From IMG/VR virus record IMGVR_UViG_3300001749_000016, positions 1 to 20,109 of that record: a stretch of 20,109 bases of DNA; one strand, 5' to 3'. Positions 2,215 through 11,703 of the stretch are shown piece by piece; within the stretch, counting starts at the first letter, position 1; the number at the start of each line of letters is the position of its first letter. The position numbers and the translations under genes were made by a program. Below the pieces are notes generated by a model, which worked only from the letters and a program-made list of their open reading frames with translations, made no database searches and was not told the origin of the DNA. The DNA comes from a virus.

Positions 2215-2661
2215 TCAGCTTTTGGGAAACAGGAAAGCGAAAGCGATGCGCCGCCGCCAGGATGGGGTGAGCGGTTCCTCGACCACGCCCAGCCGCTCAT
2301 AGGAATGGATGAAGCGGTCAGGCGCGGTCAGGATCCCGACATGCTTGGCGATGGCGCGGGGTGCCATGCGGAACAGGACCAGCGCGCCGGGACCTGGCTC
2401 AGACGGGGCGATTTCCGGCATCATCGCTCGTGCTCCCTCGGCCAACACTTCACGTGGTCCGGTCTCGCCCCAGTCCCGGCTGTAGGGCGGGATCGGGAAT
2501 GGCTCTGGCCCGACAACCTCGCGCCAGATGCCGCGCGCCAGCCCAAGGCAATCGCAGCCGACGCCTTTGAGGCTGGCCTGATCATGGTAGGGCGTGCCCA
2601 GCCATGATCGCGCCGTGGCGACGACGCGGGCAGGGTCGGCCCCGGTTTGAGAATGGCTCAC
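2215..2661 (-). CDS. NlpC/P60-family tail peptidase (GTA gp14-like)
   Basis: 148-residue protein of the phage cell-wall peptidase type found beside DUF2163 genes in GTAs and related phages. The family cleaves peptidoglycan peptide stems; in the tail tip it is thought to open the wall locally for DNA entry. Visible motifs: GCDCLGLARG, with Cys38 in the position of the NlpC nucleophile, AKHVGIL with His107 as the catalytic His, and His119 in FIHSYE as a possible third residue. The start is GTG at 2661, overlapping the upstream DUF2163 stop in a GTGA junction, which suggests translational coupling. The next gene begins 10 bases downstream. Length is normal for the family. It is distinct from the lysis-cassette lysozyme and is more likely a structural entry enzyme than a release enzyme. 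Confidence 0.9.
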   Translation of the reverse strand: MSHSQTGADPARVVATARSWLGTPYHDQASLKGVGCDCLGLARGIWREVVGPEPFPIPPYSRDWGETGPREVLAEGARAMMPEIAPSEPGPGALVLFRMAPRAIAKHVGILTAPDRFIHSYERLGVVEEPLTPSWRRRIAFAFLFPKS

Positions 2662-3542
2662 AGGACACTTCCTTCATGACCACCGTCCTGGCTGGCATAG
2701 CGCAGCACCGCGTCTTGGCCGGGGATGCTGGGGAAGCCTCGGAAATTGACAGTATTAGCGAACTTCGCGCTGCAGATGGCGATGCGTTTGTCGCAGCCTG
2801 CGCGGGCGATGAAGCTGTCGCCCTCGGCGATGGCGCGCACGGGCGCTTCCAGCAGGGTCAGAGTGACGATGCTGTCATCCAGCCCATGCGTCAGCACTTC
2901 GGTGATGCGCCCGGCATTGGCCCCGCTTGTCCATGTCAGGGTGCCAGAGCCAAACCATCCTGCGTCAAACCCGGCGAGGCCCGAGGCCATGAATGCCCTG
3001 TCGCGCAACAGATCGGTCACGACGCCTGTGCCTTTGTAGATGGCGTTTTCCAGATCAACTCCGCAGCGCGCATCCCCAAGTGCCGCATCGCATCCCGCCT
3101 GAAACGTCCGCCCCACCGTCTGGCCCAGCACATGCGCCAGCGAGCGGACCTCGGCGACAAAAGCCATCCGCCCACGCCGGATTTGACCCACCGCACCCCG
3201 GCGCAGCAGCACCCGCTGGCCCGTGTCGGCCCAGTTCACCCGCCACAGCTCCACCGCCGCATTGTCCCAGCGACCATCAAGAATGTCGGTCTCGGTGATG
3301 CGGTCGGACGTCAGCACCCCTGTTGCGTCCTGCGCGTCGACGGCCAGATCGGAGCCAGCACGGATTTCTGAGGCGGCAAACCCGCTTTCTGGTTCAAACG
3401 TGGTGCCATCGAAGGCCAGCGTGCGATCATGATCGGTGAAGCCCAGTGCCACACCGTCTGCGCGTGATATCCGCCAGCACCAAGCGAGCGTGGTGGTGCC
3501 ATCGTCGAGATGGGCTTGCAGGTCAGGGGAGAGGGTTTTCAT
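2658..3542 (-). CDS. DUF2163 tail hub protein (GTA gp13-like)
   Basis: 294 residues from the ATG at 3542. This start is chosen because it makes an ATGA overlap with the stop of the Rz1-like gene; the in-frame extension upstream to 3593 is unlike the family. The N-terminus (KTLSPDLQAHL, then TLAWCWRI and GFTDHDRTL) and the C-terminal AGCDKR...NFRGFPSIPG segment are hallmarks of the DUF2163/phage BR0599 family, which forms the hub under the distal tail protein. Four cysteines (151, 160, 250, 257) are spaced as two pairs. Lambda gpL, the functional counterpart, carries an iron-sulfur cluster in its C-terminal domain, so these are candidate cluster ligands (inference). Normally it directly follows the DUF2460 gene; here the whole lysis cassette lies between them. 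Confidence 0.92.
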   Translation of the reverse strand: MKTLSPDLQAHLDDGTTTLAWCWRISRADGVALGFTDHDRTLAFDGTTFEPESGFAASEIRAGSDLAVDAQDATGVLTSDRITETDILDGRWDNAAVELWRVNWADTGQRVLLRRGAVGQIRRGRMAFVAEVRSLAHVLGQTVGRTFQAGCDAALGDARCGVDLENAIYKGTGVVTDLLRDRAFMASGLAGFDAGWFGSGTLTWTSGANAGRITEVLTHGLDDSIVTLTLLEAPVRAIAEGDSFIARAGCDKRIAICSAKFANTVNFRGFPSIPGQDAVLRYASQDGGHEGSVL

Positions 3543-3781
3543 CGGCAGGTTCCTGTCATGCGGTCGTCGAGATCGGCGATCCAGTCCGCCCAATCGCTTG
3601 GCACCTCTGCGACTGTCTCAGCAGAGGGCTTGGCAAGGCGCGCTTCGCCGTAGGAGGCGCAGCCAGCATCACCAGGCATTGTCGTTGTCGCGCAGCCTGT
3701 CAGCAGGAGCGCCAGCATCGCGCCCGTCGCGAACCGCCTTGCGTCCGGCGTCCATCCGGTCTTTCTGATCGCGTCGCGCAT
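3539..3781 (-). CDS. Rz1-like outer-membrane spanin lipoprotein
   Basis: 80 residues from the ATG at 3781. A basic N-terminus is followed by a hydrophobic stretch and lipobox LLTGC (Cys30 would be the lipidated +1 residue). The mature part is about 50 residues, with a short periodic C-terminus (SDWADWIADLDDRM). The gene begins inside the preceding Rz-like gene in another frame and overlaps it by 113 bases, the classic embedded/overlapping Rz/Rz1 arrangement; the protein would be the o-spanin that pairs with the inner-membrane spanin to disrupt the outer membrane. A shorter start at 3718 gives only an eight-residue signal before the Cys and is less likely. Its stop overlaps the DUF2163 start (ATGA). 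An unlipidated alternative is unlikely because the lipobox is clear. Confidence 0.8.
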   Translation of the reverse strand: MRDAIRKTGWTPDARRFATGAMLALLLTGCATTTMPGDAGCASYGEARLAKPSAETVAEVPSDWADWIADLDDRMTGTCR

Positions 3782-3899: not shown

Positions 3900-3993
3900 C
3901 GTCCCGCTCCCCGCGTGCCGCGGCGACGCAAAGGCCGACGATCAGCACGCCGAGGCAGCCGCCCATGACCAGACCTGCGAGGAACTCAAGCAT
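3892..3993 (-). CDS. Tiny single-pass membrane protein (33 aa)
   Basis: A 33-codon frame from the ATG at 3993 to the TGA at 3892. It encodes a short N-terminus, one glycine-rich hydrophobic helix (residues 4-26, ending GLCVAAARG) and a charged tail ERDDG. It overlaps the upstream gene by 8 bases and its stop lies inside the start region of the Rz-like gene, so it closes an otherwise 86-base gap between two genes in an operon with almost no gaps. The pattern (glycine-rich helix, Cys, then Ala-Ala and a basic/acidic tail) resembles tiny phage proteins of the DUF3789 kind, but I cannot confirm membership. Function unknown; a role in lysis timing is possible from position only. Confidence 0.55.
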   Translation of the reverse strand: MLEFLAGLVMGGCLGVLIVGLCVAAARGERDDG

Positions 3994-4216
3994 CGCCACG
4001 GAACCCGCGCTCGATCCGGTCGCGCAGGCCGATCAGGCCAAGCCCGAGGAACATCAGCCCGGCCGGGGATGCATCGGCGGAGCCTGCCAGCAGCGCGACC
4101 AGGCGAGACAGCTCAGCAAGCGGGCCGGTGGCGGGCAGCAGGATAGATGCCACGCCGGTGAGAATGGCGAGACACCCCGCCCACCAGGTCAGGGAATTGG
4201 GACGGATATAGCGCAT
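3986..4216 (-). CDS. Small lysis-cassette membrane protein, two predicted TM segments
   Basis: 76 residues with a hydrophobic segment at about residues 12-30, a second at about 51-64 (LMFLGLGLIGL) and a basic/acidic tail (RDRIERGFRG). It starts one base after the end of the lysozyme-gene stop region (the stop ends at 4221, the ATG is at 4216), with a GGAGAA Shine-Dalgarno-like sequence inside the end of the lysozyme gene. Position right after the endolysin and before spanins suggests a second holin or antiholin-like factor, but no family motif is recognised. The codon use and GC content match the neighbours. Confidence 0.65.
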   Translation of the reverse strand: MRYIRPNSLTWWAGCLAILTGVASILLPATGPLAELSRLVALLAGSADASPAGLMFLGLGLIGLRDRIERGFRGDA

Positions 4217-4220
4217 GGGA

Positions 4221-4880
4221 TCAGGTTCTCCGGATCAGGCTGGAAAGGAAGGTGGCCAGCCGAGCGAGCCAACTGGTCTCTGCGGCTGGCGTGGATGGGA
4301 TAATGGGTGGCGGTGGCGTGAGGGCCGGGCGCAAGAGCGCCAGCGCCTGGTCTTCACTCAGGAGTCGAACAGGTCGGGAGAAATCGACGCGTCCCGATCG
4401 GTCCACCGCCCAGACCGGGATGGTGCCGCCCGGATAGCGACCATGGAGGAACAGATCGCGCTCCGCCTCGCGGCGTGGAATGATCGCGGCGGGCTTGCGC
4501 CATCCCATGAAGGCCTGCGCAGCCGCCTCGCGGTCGCCTGCGTTCAGATGGCGTGTCAGCTTGGCACGTGCGATACCGCCCGTGTTGTAGTGAAAGCTGA
4601 CCAGCGCATCGAATTCATGCGGTGCCAGCGGTACCATTACGGCCTGCCGCACCTCGGCCTCGCAGGTCTGAATGTCGGCGCGGAACACCCGGAATGCCTC
4701 CCGGATCGCGGCATCGAGATCGGCGGGCATCCCGCGCGGCATGCCGATCGGATCAGGCGAACCGGCGGCGGCAGTATGGCCGATGCCGAAGGTCCAGACG
4801 TTTTTCACGTCTGTATAGGGCCCGGGCACGAGGCCTTCGTGCCGGGCGAGGGCCAGAAGGCCCCGGTCAGTCATGTGCAT
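4221..4880 (-). CDS. Phage endolysin, GH24 (T4-type) lysozyme
   Basis: 219 residues. The catalytic pattern of T4-type lysozymes is present near the N-terminus: Glu15 in RHEGLVPGPYTD, Asp24, and Thr30 in WTFGIGHT, with the same spacing as T4 Glu11/Asp20/Thr26. FDALVSFHYNTG further on matches the conserved second-lobe motif. The enzyme cleaves the N-acetylmuramyl-glucosaminyl bond of peptidoglycan. There is no N-terminal signal-anchor, so export presumably depends on the holin. The last ~60 residues are Pro-rich followed by an amphipathic helix (WLARLATFLSSLIRR), an extension beyond the catalytic domain that could be a membrane-associating tail. Two starts, at 4880 and 4874, are equally plausible. 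It lies in the lysis cassette 4 bases after the preceding small membrane gene. Confidence 0.93.
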   Translation of the reverse strand: MHMTDRGLLALARHEGLVPGPYTDVKNVWTFGIGHTAAAGSPDPIGMPRGMPADLDAAIREAFRVFRADIQTCEAEVRQAVMVPLAPHEFDALVSFHYNTGGIARAKLTRHLNAGDREAAAQAFMGWRKPAAIIPRREAERDLFLHGRYPGGTIPVWAVDRSGRVDFSRPVRLLSEDQALALLRPALTPPPPIIPSTPAAETSWLARLATFLSSLIRRT

Positions 4881-4884
4881 GGTT

Positions 4885-5016
4885 TTACCCGAGAAGTGAG
4901 AGGAGCAAGATCAGGACGGCGACAACGAAGCCGATGCGGATGCGGTGGTTGAAGGTCAGGCCCGGATCGGCAGCGTCGCTGCGCAGGATGCGCGCAAGGC
5001 GGAGGAGATCATGCAT
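4885..5016 (-). CDS. Small single-TM protein (43 aa)
   Basis: The 43-codon frame from the ATG at 5016 overlaps the last 8 bases of the holin gene. The protein has an amphipathic N-terminal half (MHDLLRLARILRSDAADPG, then basic residues) and a C-terminal hydrophobic segment of about 16 residues (FVVAVLILLLSLLG), so it is a candidate C-tail-anchored membrane protein. The same frame is open upstream to 5196, but that extension is Arg/Ser/Pro-rich and looks like a shadow of the holin gene, so the short form is preferred. The lysozyme starts 4 bases downstream. No family recognised; an antiholin or holin accessory role is only inferred from its position between holin and endolysin. Confidence 0.6.
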   Translation of the reverse strand: MHDLLRLARILRSDAADPGLTFNHRIRIGFVVAVLILLLSLLG

Positions 5017-5359
5017 CGTTATCGCCGCCTTCCGTGTGGCGCATCCGGACGAGGACGATCTCGATAAAGGCTGGTCCGAAGACGCCCACAAGATAGGCCG
5101 CCGATCCCGCAGCCCCGCCCGCAGGGATTGCCTCCGGCGGCAGGCCGAGCCACGCGGTGATGACCGCCATCGACAGGCTGCCCATCCCGGCCGCAATCAA
5201 CCCGCCGAGCAGTATGTGGCGCAGCGCGTCGCGCAGGCGCATCCTTGTTGTCAGCGCGTTTGTTGCGCCGCCCAGCGCACCCCAGGCGGCAAGGATGACG
5301 GCGGTTGACGCGGCCAGCTCGCGCAACACTGCGGCCAGAAAGCGGGTCTCTTCATTCAT
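5009..5359 (-). CDS. Phage holin (three predicted TM segments)
   Basis: 116 residues. It has a short charged N-terminus (MNEETRF), hydrophobic segments at about 12-32, 48-68 and 78-102, and a charged C-terminus (RMRHTEGGDNDA). Size and topology fit a class I holin, and the sequence looks like the LydA/phage_holin_3 type (residues AAWGALGGATNAL and LRHILLGGLIAAGMG). Holins form the inner-membrane lesion that releases or activates the endolysin; the GH24 lysozyme gene lies just downstream. The start overlaps the DUF2460 stop (ATGA), so the cassette is translationally coupled to a tail gene. Family assignment is from memory of the fold type; the holin role is well supported by context. Confidence 0.8.
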   Translation of the reverse strand: MNEETRFLAAVLRELAASTAVILAAWGALGGATNALTTRMRLRDALRHILLGGLIAAGMGSLSMAVITAWLGLPPEAIPAGGAAGSAAYLVGVFGPAFIEIVLVRMRHTEGGDNDA

Positions 5360-5982
5360 CTGCGGATCTCCAGCAGCGGGATGGATGCGATGGATCCGAG
5401 CCGTTCGATATCGAGGGTGATGTCGAGCGTGTCGGTGTCGAAGCGGACGGGCACGTCGAAGGCGAAGCCTGCGGTGATGGCCACGCCCGCGCCGGGGGCG
5501 GCGTCGAAACTTACAACGCCGGTGGCGGTGTCGACGCCCCAGCCCGACATCTGTTCGACCCCGCCCAGCGCGATACGCACGCTGTCCGCGACGGGCTTGG
5601 CGATAGCGCGGGTCCAGGCCTGCGCGCCGGAGGTGTAGTGCTTCAGCAATGCAAAACTGGTGACAATACCGTCGCTGGTGCCGATGAGCTGGTCGGTTGG
5701 GGTCACGGGTTGCGACGGCAGGTTGGATTTGTAGTCGGCCCAGTCCTTGTAGCGAAACCCGTGCAGTCGACCGTTCCGCGCCTCGAAGAAGGCGACCACG
5801 GCTGCCAGATCGTCCGCACGGCGGATGCCATAGGCCACATCATAGCGGCGGCGCGAATTGGCCCAGCTGGCGTTGCGCTCTTCATCGCCCGAAGCCAGTT
5901 CCACAATCTGCGTGCGCCGTTCGGGCCCACCGCGTGCGCCGCGACTGATGTTGTCGGGAAACCGGACCTCGTGAAACGCCAT
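5356..5982 (-). CDS. DUF2460 distal tail protein (GTA gp12-like)
   Basis: 208 residues from the ATG at 5982, which shares one base with the tape measure stop (TGATG); a GTG one codon upstream is possible but less likely. The N-terminus AFHEVRFPDNISRGARGGPER and the FFEARNGRLHGFRYKDWADYKS segment are characteristic of the DUF2460 family (TIGR02217), which in RcGTA forms the distal tail ring at the tube end. Full length for the family. In GTA-like systems the next gene is DUF2163; here the holin gene follows by ATGA overlap and DUF2163 is displaced by about 1.8 kb. Confidence 0.93.
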   Translation of the reverse strand: MAFHEVRFPDNISRGARGGPERRTQIVELASGDEERNASWANSRRRYDVAYGIRRADDLAAVVAFFEARNGRLHGFRYKDWADYKSNLPSQPVTPTDQLIGTSDGIVTSFALLKHYTSGAQAWTRAIAKPVADSVRIALGGVEQMSGWGVDTATGVVSFDAAPGAGVAITAGFAFDVPVRFDTDTLDITLDIERLGSIASIPLLEIRR

Positions 5983-8429
5983 CACATGCCCCTCCGACCG
6001 AGGGACACCGCCCGGGCAATATCCGCCGCGACCTGTGTGCGGGATTGCCGGAAGCTTTCGGCATCGCGGGCGTTGATCGTGACGGAGATATTCGAGGCTG
6101 CACTCGCCCCCTGTCCATATCCAGCAGCCTCACGACGGGAGAGGACGCGTTCACCTCGTTGCAGGATCGCCGGAACTTCGTCGGGTTTGATGCCAGCCCA
6201 GCCACCGGAATGCATGCGTGGTGCGCCTGCGAAGGCCAGCGCAGGGACCATGCGGCCCGGGCCCGGCGATCCGACCGTGCCGCCAGCATGCAAGATATCT
6301 GCGAACAACCCGCCCGCACCGCCCAGCGCGCCAGAGAGGGCGTTGGCGATGGGACCAAGGATGAACCGCCGCGCGGCCAGTTTGGCCAGATCGGCGATCA
6401 TCGACGTAACGAGGTCGCGGAAGTCCAGTTTGCCGGATTTGACGAACTCGCCCACGGCGTTCTCGGCGCTTTGGAACGCGCCAACCAATGTCTGGCCGAT
6501 ATCGCCTCCAATATCGCGCGCCTTGGCGGCATAGTCGGCGAGTGCCGCCGTCATCGCGCCCCAGCCTGTTGCCGCCTGTCCGGCACCGGCAGCAGCAGCC
6601 GCACCGGCATTGCGGGCAGCACCACCTGCGCCATCCGCTGCGGTGGTGGTGTCATTCAGCCCGGCCGCCAGCGCATCGGCAGAACTGGCGGCATCGGCCA
6701 GTGCAGCTTCCGCCTCTGATCCGGTCCCAGTCACCGCGTCACGCAACGCTTGCCAACTGGCGAGCGGTCGACCTGCGGCATCTGCCAGCATCCCCGCCGC
6801 CTCGCGATATCCATCGGCGCGGGCGCGCGCATCGTCGGCCATTGCGCCAAGGCCAAGGTCTGGCGGTTCAAGATAGGTGCGCGACAGCGCGGCGGAAAAG
6901 GCATCCGCTGCAGCCGCCCCTGCAGCCGTCGCGGCACCCTCGAAGGGGTTGCCGATCCGCGCCAGTCCCACAGGATCCAGCGTGCCGATCCGCACGCCGC
7001 CCTCACCCGTTGCCCACTCCGGCAGCAGCGCCAGCGCCGCATTCAACCCGGTGATGAAAGTGTTGATGCGGGTGACGACGCCGTTCAGCATCGCCTCGAC
7101 GCCCGAGATCAGCCCGTTCGCCGCCTGGAATGCGAAGTCACCGATGGCTCCCGGCAGACTGCCCCAGATCGCCACGGCGGCATCATAGGCCCCCCGGAAA
7201 ATCGCCGCTGTCCGGTCGCCGAAGCTGACCACGCCCGCGATGGTGCCCTCGAGCGCCGAAAGTCCGGACGCCTTCAGGCTCTCCCAACTGGCCGACATGT
7301 TGGCAAAGGCGGCATCCAGCCCCAGCTCCATTCGGGACCACACCTCCTTCGCAAGATCGCCCAGCAGCTGGAACGCCTCACCGACGCCGCCGACCTTGGT
7401 CACCAGTTGCGAGAATTGATAGACCAGCTCACCCGCACCGACGATCATCGCGCCGATGCCGGTGCGGATCAGCGCACCGCGCAGAACAACCAGTGCCGTG
7501 GCGACCCCGCGTACCGACAGGGCGGCTGCCGCCATGCCCGCAACCCAGCGCCCGGCCATGATGCCTGCGAACGTCGCGGCATAAGTGGTCAGCCGCCCGA
7601 TGTTGTCAAAGAGTGCCTTGATCGCGATGCCCACCGGCCCGGTGGTGCGCGCGACGCTGGCCAGCGCATTGGCCACGGCCTCCAGTGCCGGAGCGGCCGC
7701 AACCGCGAGTTGGTTCGAGACGCCGCGCCAGATCAGCCCCAGCCGCGAAATCGCATCATTGGTGCGTTCGATCTGGTCAGCATCCTGCTCAGAAACCACC
7801 ACCCCGAAGGCAAGCACGTCCTCGGTTGCCTGGCGCAGAGTCGCTGTATCAATCCGCGACATGGCGATGGAGCCTTCCTCGCCGAAGAGCTGCCCCGCAA
7901 CGGCGGCGCGCTCAGCCGCAGGCACGAAATCCGCGATGGCGGCGTTGATCGCGCCGACGCGCTGATCAAGCGGCAAGTCGATCAGGTCAGAGGCGGAAAG
8001 CCCGAGCCGGTCCAACGCGTCTGCCGCGGGGCCAGTCCCGGCGGCCGCCTGGCTGAGGCGGCGTGTCAGATCCTTGGTCGCCTGTTCGATCCCGGACATC
8101 GACACGCCCGCCAACTCGCCCGCGCGCTCCAGCGTCTGGATCGAGGCGACCGTCGTCCCGAGTGATTGCGCCAGCTTGGCCTGCGCATCGACGGTCTGCA
8201 GCCCGGACCTGATCATCGCTGCCCCGGCTGCGGCCAGTGCAGCCGTGGCGGCAGCGGCCGCCAGCGTGGCGCGGCGGGCAAATGCGGCGACGCGTGCATT
8301 CGCAAGATCCATCTCGCGCGACAACCGCCCGAACCCGCGCGCCCCGGCCTCACCGACGCCTTCCAGCTCGGCGCGTACCTGGCGGCCGCCTTCCGCCACG
8401 AGGCGCACGGAGACCCTTTTCTCAGCCAT
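5982..8429 (-). CDS. Tail tape measure protein (lambda-type C-terminus)
   Basis: 815 residues from the ATG at 8429, preceded by GGAAG and overlapping the end of the frameshifted chaperone frame; an in-frame ATG at 8453 is less likely. Tape measure features: Ala/Gly-rich helical sequence, hydrophobic helices (about residues 50-75 and in the middle third around 290-345), and long helices in the Ala-rich C-terminal half. The region LDFRDLVTSMIADLAKLAARR, then RMHSGGWAGIKPDEVPAILQRGERVLSRRE, resembles the C-terminal segment of lambda-family tape measures. The protein sets tail length and is ejected ahead of DNA. It is much longer than the roughly 220-residue RcGTA tape measure, so the tail should be correspondingly longer than a GTA tail. 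Largest complete gene in the window. Confidence 0.93.
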   Translation of the reverse strand: MAEKRVSVRLVAEGGRQVRAELEGVGEAGARGFGRLSREMDLANARVAAFARRATLAAAAATAALAAAGAAMIRSGLQTVDAQAKLAQSLGTTVASIQTLERAGELAGVSMSGIEQATKDLTRRLSQAAAGTGPAADALDRLGLSASDLIDLPLDQRVGAINAAIADFVPAAERAAVAGQLFGEEGSIAMSRIDTATLRQATEDVLAFGVVVSEQDADQIERTNDAISRLGLIWRGVSNQLAVAAAPALEAVANALASVARTTGPVGIAIKALFDNIGRLTTYAATFAGIMAGRWVAGMAAAALSVRGVATALVVLRGALIRTGIGAMIVGAGELVYQFSQLVTKVGGVGEAFQLLGDLAKEVWSRMELGLDAAFANMSASWESLKASGLSALEGTIAGVVSFGDRTAAIFRGAYDAAVAIWGSLPGAIGDFAFQAANGLISGVEAMLNGVVTRINTFITGLNAALALLPEWATGEGGVRIGTLDPVGLARIGNPFEGAATAAGAAAADAFSAALSRTYLEPPDLGLGAMADDARARADGYREAAGMLADAAGRPLASWQALRDAVTGTGSEAEAALADAASSADALAAGLNDTTTAADGAGGAARNAGAAAAAGAGQAATGWGAMTAALADYAAKARDIGGDIGQTLVGAFQSAENAVGEFVKSGKLDFRDLVTSMIADLAKLAARRFILGPIANALSGALGGAGGLFADILHAGGTVGSPGPGRMVPALAFAGAPRMHSGGWAGIKPDEVPAILQRGERVLSRREAAGYGQGASAASNISVTINARDAESFRQSRTQVAADIARAVSLGRRGM

Positions 8430-9089
8430 CGCGGCTTCCTTCCATCTGTTCATTGAGTTTGCGCACCATCACCGCCTCGATCTCGGGCAGCAGTTCGGCG
8501 GCGATCAGGGGGTCGATGCCCAGCGCCTGTGCGAGCGCCAAGGCTGCGCCCATGTCCCAGCCCAGCACTGAACCGTGGGTGACCCGCAGCTGACCGCCAA
8601 GACGGCCGACGAGGTCCCAGACCTGCCAACCGTCTTGCGTTTGGGGCTGGTTCAGTCGGGCGGGGCAGTCCTGGCAATGCCCTTCGCAGGCCGTGCAATA
8701 GGTGTCGCCCCCGCCGAAGGACCACTCGGCGAGGGCGCGGAGGCGTTTTTTTCCTGATCCAGCAGCAGACCGCGCGCGACGTATTGGGTCTGGAACGCCT
8801 CGAAGACCGGCCAGATTTCCAGAAGGGCGTCGATGCCGTCCGGTGACACGTGCACAATTGTGCCCATGGCATCACCCACGCCCTCCCAATCCAGAACGGC
8901 GCGACGGGCCACGGACTTGGCCATGACCAGCGCCAGCTCTTCCGGGCTGGCATCTTCGGGCAAGGCCTCGAGGGCGGCATCGGCGCGGGCAGACACCATC
9001 AGGGCAGTAGTCAACGGCGCGACCTGCAAGCGCAGGCCGGGGGCAAGCTCCAGCCATTCAGGGGCGGCGGTCAGGTTCAGTCGGATCAT
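8422..9089 (-). CDS. Tail assembly chaperone fusion (gpGT-like) made by -1 ribosomal frameshift
   Basis: Reading 115 codons from the ATG at 9089, slipping -1 at A AAA AAC (8751-8745), and continuing in the new frame from 8745 to the TGA at 8422 gives a 222-residue fusion. The extension is 107 residues, with a cysteine cluster (TYCTACEGHCQDCPARL) followed by a well-formed helical segment (WQVWDLVGRLGGQLRV, GWDMGAALALAQALG, then AELLPEIEAVMVRKLNEQM). The only ATG in this frame that could start it independently lies late (8553), giving just 43 residues and cutting off the Cys cluster and first helix. The frame fills exactly the 220-base gap between the chaperone stop and the tape measure. In lambda, gpG and gpGT are made the same way and act before tail tube polymerisation. 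The fusion itself is an inference from sequence. Confidence 0.8.
8652..9089 (-). CDS. Tail assembly chaperone, zero-frame product (gpG-like)
   Basis: 145 residues from the ATG at 9089, which shares one base with the tail tube stop (TGATG). In-frame codons upstream to 9128 overlap the tail tube gene and are not needed. The N-terminal ~110 residues look like a compact helical protein (MIRLNLTAAPEWLELAPG, then EELALVMAKSVARRAVLDWEG), typical of a phage tail assembly chaperone located between tube and tape measure. After the slippery site at codons 114-115 the zero-frame protein changes to a low-complexity Ser/Pro/Ala/Gly tail of about 30 residues, the kind of disposable end expected for the unshifted product. 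It presumably coats the tape measure and recruits tube subunits. Family identity is from position and size rather than a specific motif. Confidence 0.8.
   Translation of the reverse strand: MIRLNLTAAPEWLELAPGLRLQVAPLTTALMVSARADAALEALPEDASPEELALVMAKSVARRAVLDWEGVGDAMGTIVHVSPDGIDALLEIWPVFEAFQTQYVARGLLLDQEKNASAPSPSGPSAGATPIARPAKGIARTAPPD
8706..8751 (-). promoter_or_regulatory. Programmed -1 frameshift signal: slippery heptamer plus stem-loop
   Basis: On the minus strand the heptamer A AAA AAC occupies 8751-8745 in the correct phase (zero-frame codons AAA AAC). A 7-nt spacer (8744-8738) is followed by a 12-bp stem: CGCCCTCGCCGA (8737-8726) pairs with TCGGCGGGGGCG (8717-8706), with a single G-U pair and an 8-nt loop. 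Slippery heptamer, 5-9 nt spacer and a strong hairpin are the standard elements of -1 frameshifting in bacteria and phages, and the position inside the tail chaperone gene is where lambda and many other tailed phages have one. Confidence 0.82.
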
Positions 9090-10030
9090 CAGTAGGCCTC
9101 GATATCGTTGATCAGGGTTGCGGTGCACATGCGGCCGGGGCTGGCGGCTTTCGCAGCTTGCCAGTCGAAGGTCGCCTGCACGCCCTGCGGCCCGGAAATC
9201 TCGATCCGGGGGCGCGGCAGGTAGACGGCGTGCACGGTGAAGGTGAAGCTCTCGCCGGACGGCAGCACATAGGCGAAGCTGATCTCGCAGGGATCGCCGT
9301 TGATCGCCTGGTCCACCAGCGTGCTGTCGGCAAAGCGGACTTCGATCCGGCCGGTGAGGGCTGCGATGGATGGGTCCGCCCCGTCGATGCGGCCGTCCGA
9401 GCGGATGGTTTCGATCCGGTCGAGGTTGTTGGCATAGGTGATTTCTGCCGAGACCACATTCCCCAGCGCAGAGCCATTCCTGCTGATCGCGCCGTTAAAA
9501 TGGCCGAACCGCTTCAAGGCCAGATCGGCAGGCGTGCCTGCACTGGTCGTTGTGGCGATGGTCTCGCCCTGCGCCACCAGCCGGGCGGTGGCCGTCAGCA
9601 GGCCCGAGCGTTGCACCTGCCAGGACAGCTGATCCAGCACGCAGCCGGAATACATCGCAAAGCGCGGCACCTCGGGCATGCCGGTCTCGATGGACATGCT
9701 GGGCAGCGTCCATGATCCGGACTGAAACTCATGGGTCCAGGGTGCCGCAGCGCCCGTGGTCGTGGGATCGCCGAAGGCTGCCTTCAGCCAGAACCCGAAG
9801 GCCTCGGCGTCGAGCGGCACAACGACATCGCCGTCCGCCGTTACCGCGTCCTTGATCGGGGCCAGGGGATCGCGGCCGTAGCCCAGCAGTTCTGAATTGA
9901 GCAGCGGCTGTTCTGATCCCAGCGAGGTGCTGGCGAAGGGCATCTTCGTGAAACCGCTGACGGGGGGCGTTCCATAGGTCGTCTCGAACGCAAGCGCCAT
10001 CTGCGCCCGCGCCCCTTGGGCTCGTGCCAT
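9089..10030 (-). CDS. Tail tube (major tail) protein
   Basis: 313 residues from the ATG at 10030, chosen because GGAGAAAG lies just upstream; the in-frame ATG at 10042 lies within that ribosome-binding sequence. The sequence (ARAQGARAQMALAFETTYGTPP, then FTKMPFAS and LGYGRDPLAP) is typical of long phage tail tube proteins with a conserved YGTPP motif, and the rest is beta-rich with TLPSMSIE and IEVRFADSTLVDQAINGDPCEISFAYVLPSGESF. The protein polymerises as hexameric rings around the tape measure. It lies between the terminator-like gene and the chaperone, the normal position. At over 300 residues it is longer than lambda gpV (246), suggesting an additional surface domain. Confidence 0.88.
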   Translation of the reverse strand: MARAQGARAQMALAFETTYGTPPVSGFTKMPFASTSLGSEQPLLNSELLGYGRDPLAPIKDAVTADGDVVVPLDAEAFGFWLKAAFGDPTTTGAAAPWTHEFQSGSWTLPSMSIETGMPEVPRFAMYSGCVLDQLSWQVQRSGLLTATARLVAQGETIATTTSAGTPADLALKRFGHFNGAISRNGSALGNVVSAEITYANNLDRIETIRSDGRIDGADPSIAALTGRIEVRFADSTLVDQAINGDPCEISFAYVLPSGESFTFTVHAVYLPRPRIEISGPQGVQATFDWQAAKAASPGRMCTATLINDIEAY

Positions 10031-10055
10031 GTCTTTCTCCAAATTATGTGGGATA

Positions 10056-10590: not shown

Positions 10591-11703
10591 TTGGTTAACG
10601 TCGCCATCGGTTTCTTGTCGCTTCTCATAATTCTGTGGGGTGCCTATTCGCTATTCTGTATTCTAATTCCGCTAAAGCCATTTCGTTCGCGCGGCAGGGC
10701 CGCCGGTTCATTTGGGGCTTCGGTCTTGGTTTTATTTTCGGTAGGTCTGGTTCTGTCAGCGATCGATCCTTCTCCTAAGGCGCAAATTGCTACCGAGCAA
10801 ACGGTGGCGTTGGACGAACCTGCGGCAGTCGAGCCATTGATGGAAGCTGAGGCAGACACGGCACTCACCAAGAATACGGAATTGTCGAACAATATACCGG
10901 CACCATGCGGAGACGGAGGAATTGCGTTCGGCGATGTAGTCGCGGTTGATGGCGAGTCTGAGCTCCATGAGACGCCAAGTTTGGAAGCCCCAAAGATTAG
11001 GAACGAAAAAGCGTCCCTTGCACTTGGCAAAGACCATTTCCATCAGATTGACAATTCAACGACTGTCAGGCGTCTTTGTGCTCAAAGCGATTGGACCGAG
11101 ATCCAGATAGTCACACCTGACTGGCTGACTTTTGTAAAAGGTTGGGTGCCCAACACGGCACTTAGAGAAATTGAGCTGACAGGCGATGGGGCCCGTGTGT
11201 ACGTCGAAGCGGATTTCTACTGGGATGATGATACCTCTAAATATAAGGCCCAGATCATTGCCGTAGTGAACAAGATTGCGCGTGAAAACGCAAAATGCGT
11301 TCCAATTGACCCATCCTCTGTCGCGAAATCATCTTCGCGCAGCAAGCCAAGTGATCCCGTATTCTTTGTAACGTGCGGCTCTGGTACCGACGTTTTTAAC
11401 GTGTGGTTTCGCCCAAAGGACGCCGACGCAGGTGAAGTATTTGCTGCGCGTCAGCCGCTCGCCCGGAACGCGGCTGCCGATTCTTGTGAAATGGCAGCAA
11501 AGCGGGCGGCAACGCACCCTTCGACAGTTTCGTTTTCGCGAGTCTGGGATTTAGCGTATATGCCGCATGCATCGGGGCGTGCTCGGGTCGTTTCCTCATT
11601 TACAGCTAAAAACGCCCTCAATCTCGAATTAAAGTACCGGATAGACTGCCTTTTTGACGGGGCTAATTTGATAGACGTCAATATCGCGGAGAGTTTTGAT
11701 TGA
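10591..11703 (+). CDS. Antisense cargo (moron) gene: membrane-anchored SH3-like protein of unknown function
   Basis: 370 residues from a TTG start with a strong ribosome-binding site. Two hydrophobic segments (about residues 5-28 and 42-58) separated by a basic loop (KPFRSRGR) suggest a double-pass or hairpin membrane anchor. An acidic linker (65-100) leads to an SH3b-like beta region (about 112-192: GDVVAVDGESELHETPS, WTEIQIV, FVKGWVPNTALRE). The C-terminal ~165 residues are an unrecognised domain with conserved-looking cysteines (236, 262, 299, 353) and segments FFVTCG and HPSTVSF. The gene is the only plus-strand gene inside the late operon. Hand counts of three lines in it give 42-43% GC twice and 62% once, below the phage average. 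A lysogenic-conversion or superinfection-exclusion function is plausible for a moron but is inference. Confidence 0.85.
   Translation: MVNVAIGFLSLLIILWGAYSLFCILIPLKPFRSRGRAAGSFGASVLVLFSVGLVLSAIDPSPKAQIATEQTVALDEPAAVEPLMEAEADTALTKNTELSNNIPAPCGDGGIAFGDVVAVDGESELHETPSLEAPKIRNEKASLALGKDHFHQIDNSTTVRRLCAQSDWTEIQIVTPDWLTFVKGWVPNTALREIELTGDGARVYVEADFYWDDDTSKYKAQIIAVVNKIARENAKCVPIDPSSVAKSSSRSKPSDPVFFVTCGSGTDVFNVWFRPKDADAGEVFAARQPLARNAAADSCEMAAKRAATHPSTVSFSRVWDLAYMPHASGRARVVSSFTAKNALNLELKYRIDCLFDGANLIDVNIAESFD

What the first reader, a model, noticed from the sequence alone, without database searches (positions are those of the whole stretch)
8706..8751. Textbook -1 frameshift cassette in the tail assembly chaperone gene
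On the minus strand an in-phase A AAA AAC heptamer (8751-8745) is followed by a 7-nt spacer and a 12-bp GC-rich stem (8737-8726 pairing with 8717-8706, one G-U pair, 8-nt loop). Slipping -1 opens a 107-codon extension that ends inside the tape measure start region and has no usable early start codon of its own. Frameshifted G/GT chaperones are known from lambda and many tailed phages, but the heptamer here differs from lambda's G GGA AAG and the extension is not an obvious lambda gpT relative.
Basis: partly seen in the sequence, partly recalled or inferred. Interest (0 to 1): 0.75.

Follow-up and report, generated by a model that had tools for sequence, protein, structure and literature searches.

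The report
Frameshifted tail assembly chaperone, Rhodobacteraceae phage
A small phage gene uses a well-known ribosome slip signal to make a longer second protein that probably helps build the phage tail; comparison of about 190 related sequences supports the signal strongly, but it is one more example of a widespread and already described trick.

Summary
On the minus strand an in-phase A_AAA_AAC (8751-8745), a 7-nt spacer and a 12-bp hairpin lead into a 107-codon -1 extension ending at 8422. It is not chance. Among 188 distinct homologous loci, 169 carry A_AAA_AAC at the position, 15 G_GGA_AAC and 1 A_AAA_AAA. In a set fetched through the upstream protein only, 59 of 60 carry A_AAA_AAC. The hairpin keeps 95.5% of its pairs (40-57% when slid), and its silent sites are constrained. 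The extension evolves as protein in the -1 frame. In 144 of 188 loci that frame has no start codon before the conserved cysteines. The upstream product is a tail assembly chaperone (PHROG 313; nearest solved structure HK97 gp13). The extension carries Pfam DUF7697, and a profile comparison relates it to DUF1799, which is frameshift-encoded in the same way. This is a lambda G/GT-type cassette. The same two heptamers were published for Caulobacter phages phiCbK and Colossus, and close Rhodobacter phages are already annotated with a joined gene. Modestly new: DUF7697 and DUF1799 are the frameshift-encoded T domain, and the DUF7697 branch has four invariant cysteines, perhaps a metal site.

The parts
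8652..9089 (-). G-like tail assembly chaperone, zero frame, 145 aa; ATG at 9089 overlaps the stop of the tail tube gene
   Evidence: PHROG 313 tail assembly chaperone, E 1.1e-24; model nearest solved structure HK97 gp13 2ob9, Z 4.7
8745..8751 (-). slippery heptamer A_AAA_AAC, in phase
8738..8744 (-). 7-nt spacer
   Evidence: shorter in some relatives whose hairpin pairs in another register
8706..8737 (-). 3' stimulatory hairpin, 12 bp (13 bp in the predicted minimum-energy fold), GC-rich
8422..8745 (-). -1 frame T-like extension, 107 codons plus stop
8662..8694 (-). CxxCxxxCxxC, four cysteines invariant in 38 diverse relatives, possible metal site
   Evidence: alignment
8431..8577 (-). Pfam DUF7697 part of the extension
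8652..8744 (-). zero-frame tail of G after the slip site, predicted disordered, dual-coding stretch
   Evidence: pLDDT under 50 from residue 115
9089..10042 (-). tail tube protein directly upstream
   Evidence: PF18906, E 7.8e-62
5982..8429 (-). tape measure protein directly downstream
   Evidence: PF09718 E 1.6e-21; PHROG 8462 E 8.2e-218

Best explanation
This is a lambda G/GT-type tail assembly chaperone gene. Most ribosomes finish G (145 aa). A minority pause at the hairpin and slip back one base on A_AAA_AAC, then read 107 codons of the -1 frame to make GT (222 aa). By analogy with lambda, G coats the tape measure protein and the T part recruits tail tube protein. Shown by sequence evidence: the signal, its conservation, coding selection in the -1 frame, the lack of another start in most relatives, and gene order. 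Inferred: that slipping happens in the cell, its efficiency, and the roles of G and GT.
For: Heptamer position kept in almost all of 188 loci, with a swap to G_GGA_AAC in 15. In a set fetched by G alone, 59 of 60 have it and 58 of 60 keep 11-12 of 12 stem pairs. Variation peaks at zero-frame position 3 upstream (0.42) and at -1-frame position 3 downstream (0.395 in the T-only part); third positions in the paired stem average 0.13 against 0.33 elsewhere, Mann-Whitney p 0.004. Stem 95.5% paired against 40-57% slid, two pairs with changes on both sides. In 144 of 188 loci the -1 frame has no ATG/GTG/TTG before the fourth conserved Cys. G is a tail assembly chaperone by PHROG and, weakly, by fold. 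Extension model pLDDT 89.4; nearest viral models include tape measure chaperones of phages F20, W011D and Loki. Closest isolated phages, RcKemmy and RcMeacham, are annotated with a joined gene at the same place.
Against: No expression, proteomic or reporter data. A_AAA_AAC is less shift-prone than A_AAA_AAG in E. coli (review). Two loci have broken heptamers (L073 AGAAAAC, L283 GGGACAC), and one prophage has an extra A that fuses the frames. Part of the first locus sets was fetched with patterns inside the stem region, which inflates amino-acid conservation there. Structural matches are weak in absolute score, and compensatory changes in the stem are few.
Confidence: 0.95

Rival explanations
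1. The downstream frame is a separate small gene (DUF7697) started at GTG 8568 or ATG 8553, and the heptamer is incidental.
For: Pfam and PHROG hold only the C-terminal half as a family of its own; Nostoc phage Nsp-JY21 lists two separate chaperone genes.
Against: The 59 codons before that start are conserved as -1 frame protein, with four invariant Cys. No Shine-Dalgarno is seen before the GTG or ATG (sequence). The heptamer and hairpin would have no reason to be kept.
Confidence: 0.03
2. The frame change is made by RNA polymerase slippage on the A7 run, not by the ribosome.
For: A run of seven A at 8752-8746.
Against: Fifteen relatives use G_GGA_AAC at the same position with no long A run; the hairpin follows at a ribosome-type spacing and is kept.
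Confidence: 0.02
3. The two frames are remains of a broken single gene (an indel or sequencing error) in this record.
For: One relative, Roseisalinus antarcticus (L003, L088, L290), reads G and T in one frame through an extra A.
Against: The split arrangement is nearly universal in about 190 distinct loci and selection acts on both frames.
Confidence: 0.005

Closest known systems
phiCbK gp93/gp94 and CcrColossus pre-tape measure chaperones (PMC3556154)
   Same: Alphaproteobacterial phages, same place before the tape measure gene, slippery sites AAAAAAC and GGGAAAC, the same two heptamers found here; a Colossus chaperone is among the best fold matches of G.
   Different: phiCbK-like phages are large prolate siphophages; sequence relation of their extension was not tested here.
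Rhodobacter capsulatus phages RcKemmy, RcMeacham and relatives
   Same: About 40% identical G and extension, already annotated as overlapping and joined tail assembly chaperones.
   Different: Slip site G_GGA_AAC instead of A_AAA_AAC.
Phage lambda G/GT
   Same: Position between tube and tape measure genes, in-phase heptamer, -1 extension ending at the tape measure start.
   Different: Heptamer G_GGA_AAG; no lambda gpT family was hit by the extension.
Acinetobacter phage Loki gp12/gp13 and the DUF1799 group
   Same: AAAAAAC slip site (PMC5313236); remote homology of the extension to DUF1799 proteins (hhalign E 2.4e-7), themselves behind A_AAA_AAC or G_GGA_AAC.
   Different: In most of the DUF1799 loci the zero frame stops right after the heptamer, and the four-Cys module is absent.

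Membership tests
Lambda-type G/GT frameshifted tail assembly chaperone | Gene lies between tail tube and tape measure genes | tested here: met
Lambda-type G/GT frameshifted tail assembly chaperone | First product is a tail assembly chaperone by family or fold | tested here: met
   PHROG 313 E 1.1e-24; 2ob9 HK97 gp13 top solved match, Z 4.7 over 93 residues, modest; viral chaperone models
Lambda-type G/GT frameshifted tail assembly chaperone | In-phase X_XXY_YYZ near the 3' end of G, conserved | tested here: met
Lambda-type G/GT frameshifted tail assembly chaperone | Downstream frame is coding, conserved and lacks its own start | tested here: met
   no start before the fourth Cys in 144 of 188 loci
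Lambda-type G/GT frameshifted tail assembly chaperone | Fusion made at a low ratio to G; needed for tail assembly; both absent from virions | not testable with these tools
   needs expression or phage genetics
Pfam DUF7697 | Scores above the curated cut-off | tested here: met
   98.6 bits against 27
Pfam DUF1799 | Scores above the curated cut-off | tested here: not met
   13.2 bits against 26; only remote homology by profile comparison
Lambda gpT sequence family | Sequence match of the extension | tested here: inconclusive
   no lambda gpT family hit in Pfam, PHROGs or NCBIfam; no direct profile comparison with gpT was made
Zinc-binding CxxC/CxxC module | Four candidate ligand cysteines conserved | tested here: met
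   invariant in 38 diverse sequences
Zinc-binding CxxC/CxxC module | Binds metal | not testable with these tools
   needs purified protein

The most novel reading that the evidence does not exclude
The DUF7697 branch of T domains carries a metal- or redox-binding four-cysteine module at its start, encoded only after the frameshift, so that tail assembly depends on a metal-bound T domain; the DUF1799-type T parts examined here lack it. With it, two Pfam families of unknown function (DUF7697, DUF1799) become one frameshift-encoded T-domain superfamily.
Probability: 0.45. Interest if true: 0.35.

Novelty: new member of a known kind. Interest (0 to 1): 0.22.

Why it matters
It gives strong comparative evidence for a programmed frameshift in a very common Rhodobacteraceae prophage tail module, and it assigns a likely role to two Pfam families of unknown function. 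The family databases hold only the second half of the extension, so the fusion protein and its cysteine module are missing from them.

Tried and rejected
PDB search with the extension model gave nothing significant. Sequence search of solved structures gave no chaperone for G or for the extension (two chains with names like designed proteins match the C-terminal helices at E 1e-4, taken as chance). Rfam has no family here. An upstream Shine-Dalgarno-like stimulator was considered: CTGGA at -12 to -8 is largely kept in the close group but not in the G_GGA_AAC groups, so it is not claimed. The exact register of the hairpin is not universal: the HW group pairs in a shifted register with a shorter spacer. 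No paper in the held library links DUF7697 or DUF1799 to frameshifting.

Full report
What is in the sequence. The window is a 20,109-base virus record, GC 64%, with a head-and-tail module on the minus strand. The tail tube gene (9089-10042) is followed, with overlapping stop and start, by a 145-codon gene (8652-9089), and then by the tape measure gene (5982-8429). Inside the 145-codon gene lies A_AAA_AAC at 8751-8745, in phase, a 7-nt spacer, and a 12-bp stem with an 8-nt loop. Slipping back one base opens 107 codons that end at 8422, overlapping the tape measure start by 8 nt.

Is it more than chance. XXXYYYZ strings are common in this GC-rich window, but this is the only in-phase one with Y = A or T in the 16 minus-strand genes checked, and the 45 nt after it are in the most stable 0.27% of the window (fold z -2.9). 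Conservation is much stronger evidence. I collected 280 usable loci, 188 distinct, from viral contigs, named bacterial genomes and isolated phages. The heptamer is A_AAA_AAC in 169, G_GGA_AAC in 15 and A_AAA_AAA in 1, with three broken or low-quality cases. One of the 169, Roseisalinus antarcticus, has an extra A so that G and T are read in one frame and the heptamer is out of phase. Because several searches used peptide patterns inside the stem region, I repeated the test with loci fetched by the upstream protein only: 59 of 60 have A_AAA_AAC, the exception being the same Roseisalinus locus, and 58 of 60 keep 11 or 12 of the 12 stem pairs.

Which frame is coding. In the ungapped close group (105 nonredundant sequences) variation upstream peaks at the third position of the zero frame (0.42 against 0.14 and 0.11). 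Downstream, in the T-only part, it peaks at the third position of the -1 frame (0.395 against 0.11 and 0.09). In 144 of 188 loci the -1 frame has no ATG, GTG or TTG between the last stop and the fourth conserved cysteine, in some with a stop immediately before the heptamer, so independent initiation at a usual start codon cannot make the conserved part. In two distant loci the zero frame stops one codon after the heptamer (L248, L249), so the rest of G is dispensable there.

The hairpin. Third positions of the -1 frame that lie in paired stem sites vary 0.13 on average against 0.33 elsewhere (p 0.004); the remainder of the dual-coding stretch varies 0.30, so dual coding alone does not explain it. 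The fourfold sites that pair with G show only C and T, which keep the pair. On 44 distinct sequences 95.5% of cells pair, against 40-57% when the partner is slid, and two pairs show changes on both sides. This is modest covariation. A more distant group forms a hairpin in the same place in a shifted register.

What the proteins are. G matches PHROG 313, tail assembly chaperone. Its model (pLDDT over 90 for 89 residues) is ordered to residue 113 and disordered from residue 115, exactly where the slip site ends. The nearest solved structure is HK97 gp13 (2ob9, Z 4.7, modest), and among the best viral models are tail assembly chaperones. The extension carries Pfam DUF7697 (1.8e-28) and is predicted with confidence (pLDDT 89.4, pTM 0.80). 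It has no solved relative; its nearest viral models include tape measure chaperones (E 0.018 to 1.4). All 38 diverse extensions share KR, W, G-x-G and four cysteines, C18, C21, C25, C28. Single sequences repeatedly touch DUF1799 below its cut-off, and profile comparison with eight DUF1799 proteins gives E 2.4e-7 over 45 columns. Those eight lie behind in-phase A_AAA_AAC or G_GGA_AAC. In phage VarioGold a DUF1799 protein lies between the chaperone and the tape measure gene, and Vibrio phage Marilyn shares chaperone and DUF1799 protein (PMC9658991). The two Pfam families are thus best read as one T-type group.

Mechanism. Shown by sequence: signal, conservation, selection and context. Inferred: ribosomal -1 slip by the Lys and Asn tRNAs at A_AAA_AAC, stimulated by the hairpin, giving a minor GT product. 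The lambda model, in which G binds the tape measure protein and T binds the tube subunit (reviewed in PMC5009743), is taken over by analogy. A_AAA_AAC is weaker than A_AAA_AAG in E. coli, which fits a low yield; two tail chaperone genes tested in another study gave 6-7% (PMC3711429).

What is known. G/GT frameshifting is widely conserved in long-tailed phages. [quoted passage not shown] Rhodobacter phages with about 40% identity are annotated with joined genes at this place, and their describers mention the usual frameshift (PMC8601537). The finding is therefore a new member of a known kind. What seems unreported in the held literature is the identity of DUF7697 and DUF1799 as the frameshift-encoded part, and the invariant four-cysteine module.

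Noticed in passing
L003 2482-2495, L088 and L290 (Roseisalinus antarcticus CECT 7023): One extra A at the slip site puts G and T in a single frame: a natural in-frame fusion, a decayed prophage gene or a homopolymer sequencing error.
   Followed up: partly
10591-11703 +: A lone 370-aa plus-strand ORF sits inside the otherwise minus-strand head-tail module, with no Pfam match; it looks like an inserted moron gene.
   Followed up: partly
3986-5359 -: A phage lysozyme gene (4221-4880) and small ORFs lie between DUF2460 (5356-5985) and the hub genes (2658-3548 PF09931/PF09356, 2215-2661 NlpC/P60), so a lysis cassette interrupts a tail-tip module that from memory resembles that of the Rhodobacter gene transfer agent.
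   Followed up: partly
L369, L374-L378, L380, L381: DUF1799 loci: in most, the zero frame stops at or just after an in-phase A_AAA_AAC or G_GGA_AAC, with DUF1799 continuing in the -1 frame; a possible general annotation fix for this family.
   Followed up: partly
L073 and L283: Broken heptamers (AGAAAAC, GGGACAC) with hairpin and extension intact; either reduced slipping, sequencing errors or decaying prophages.
   Followed up: no
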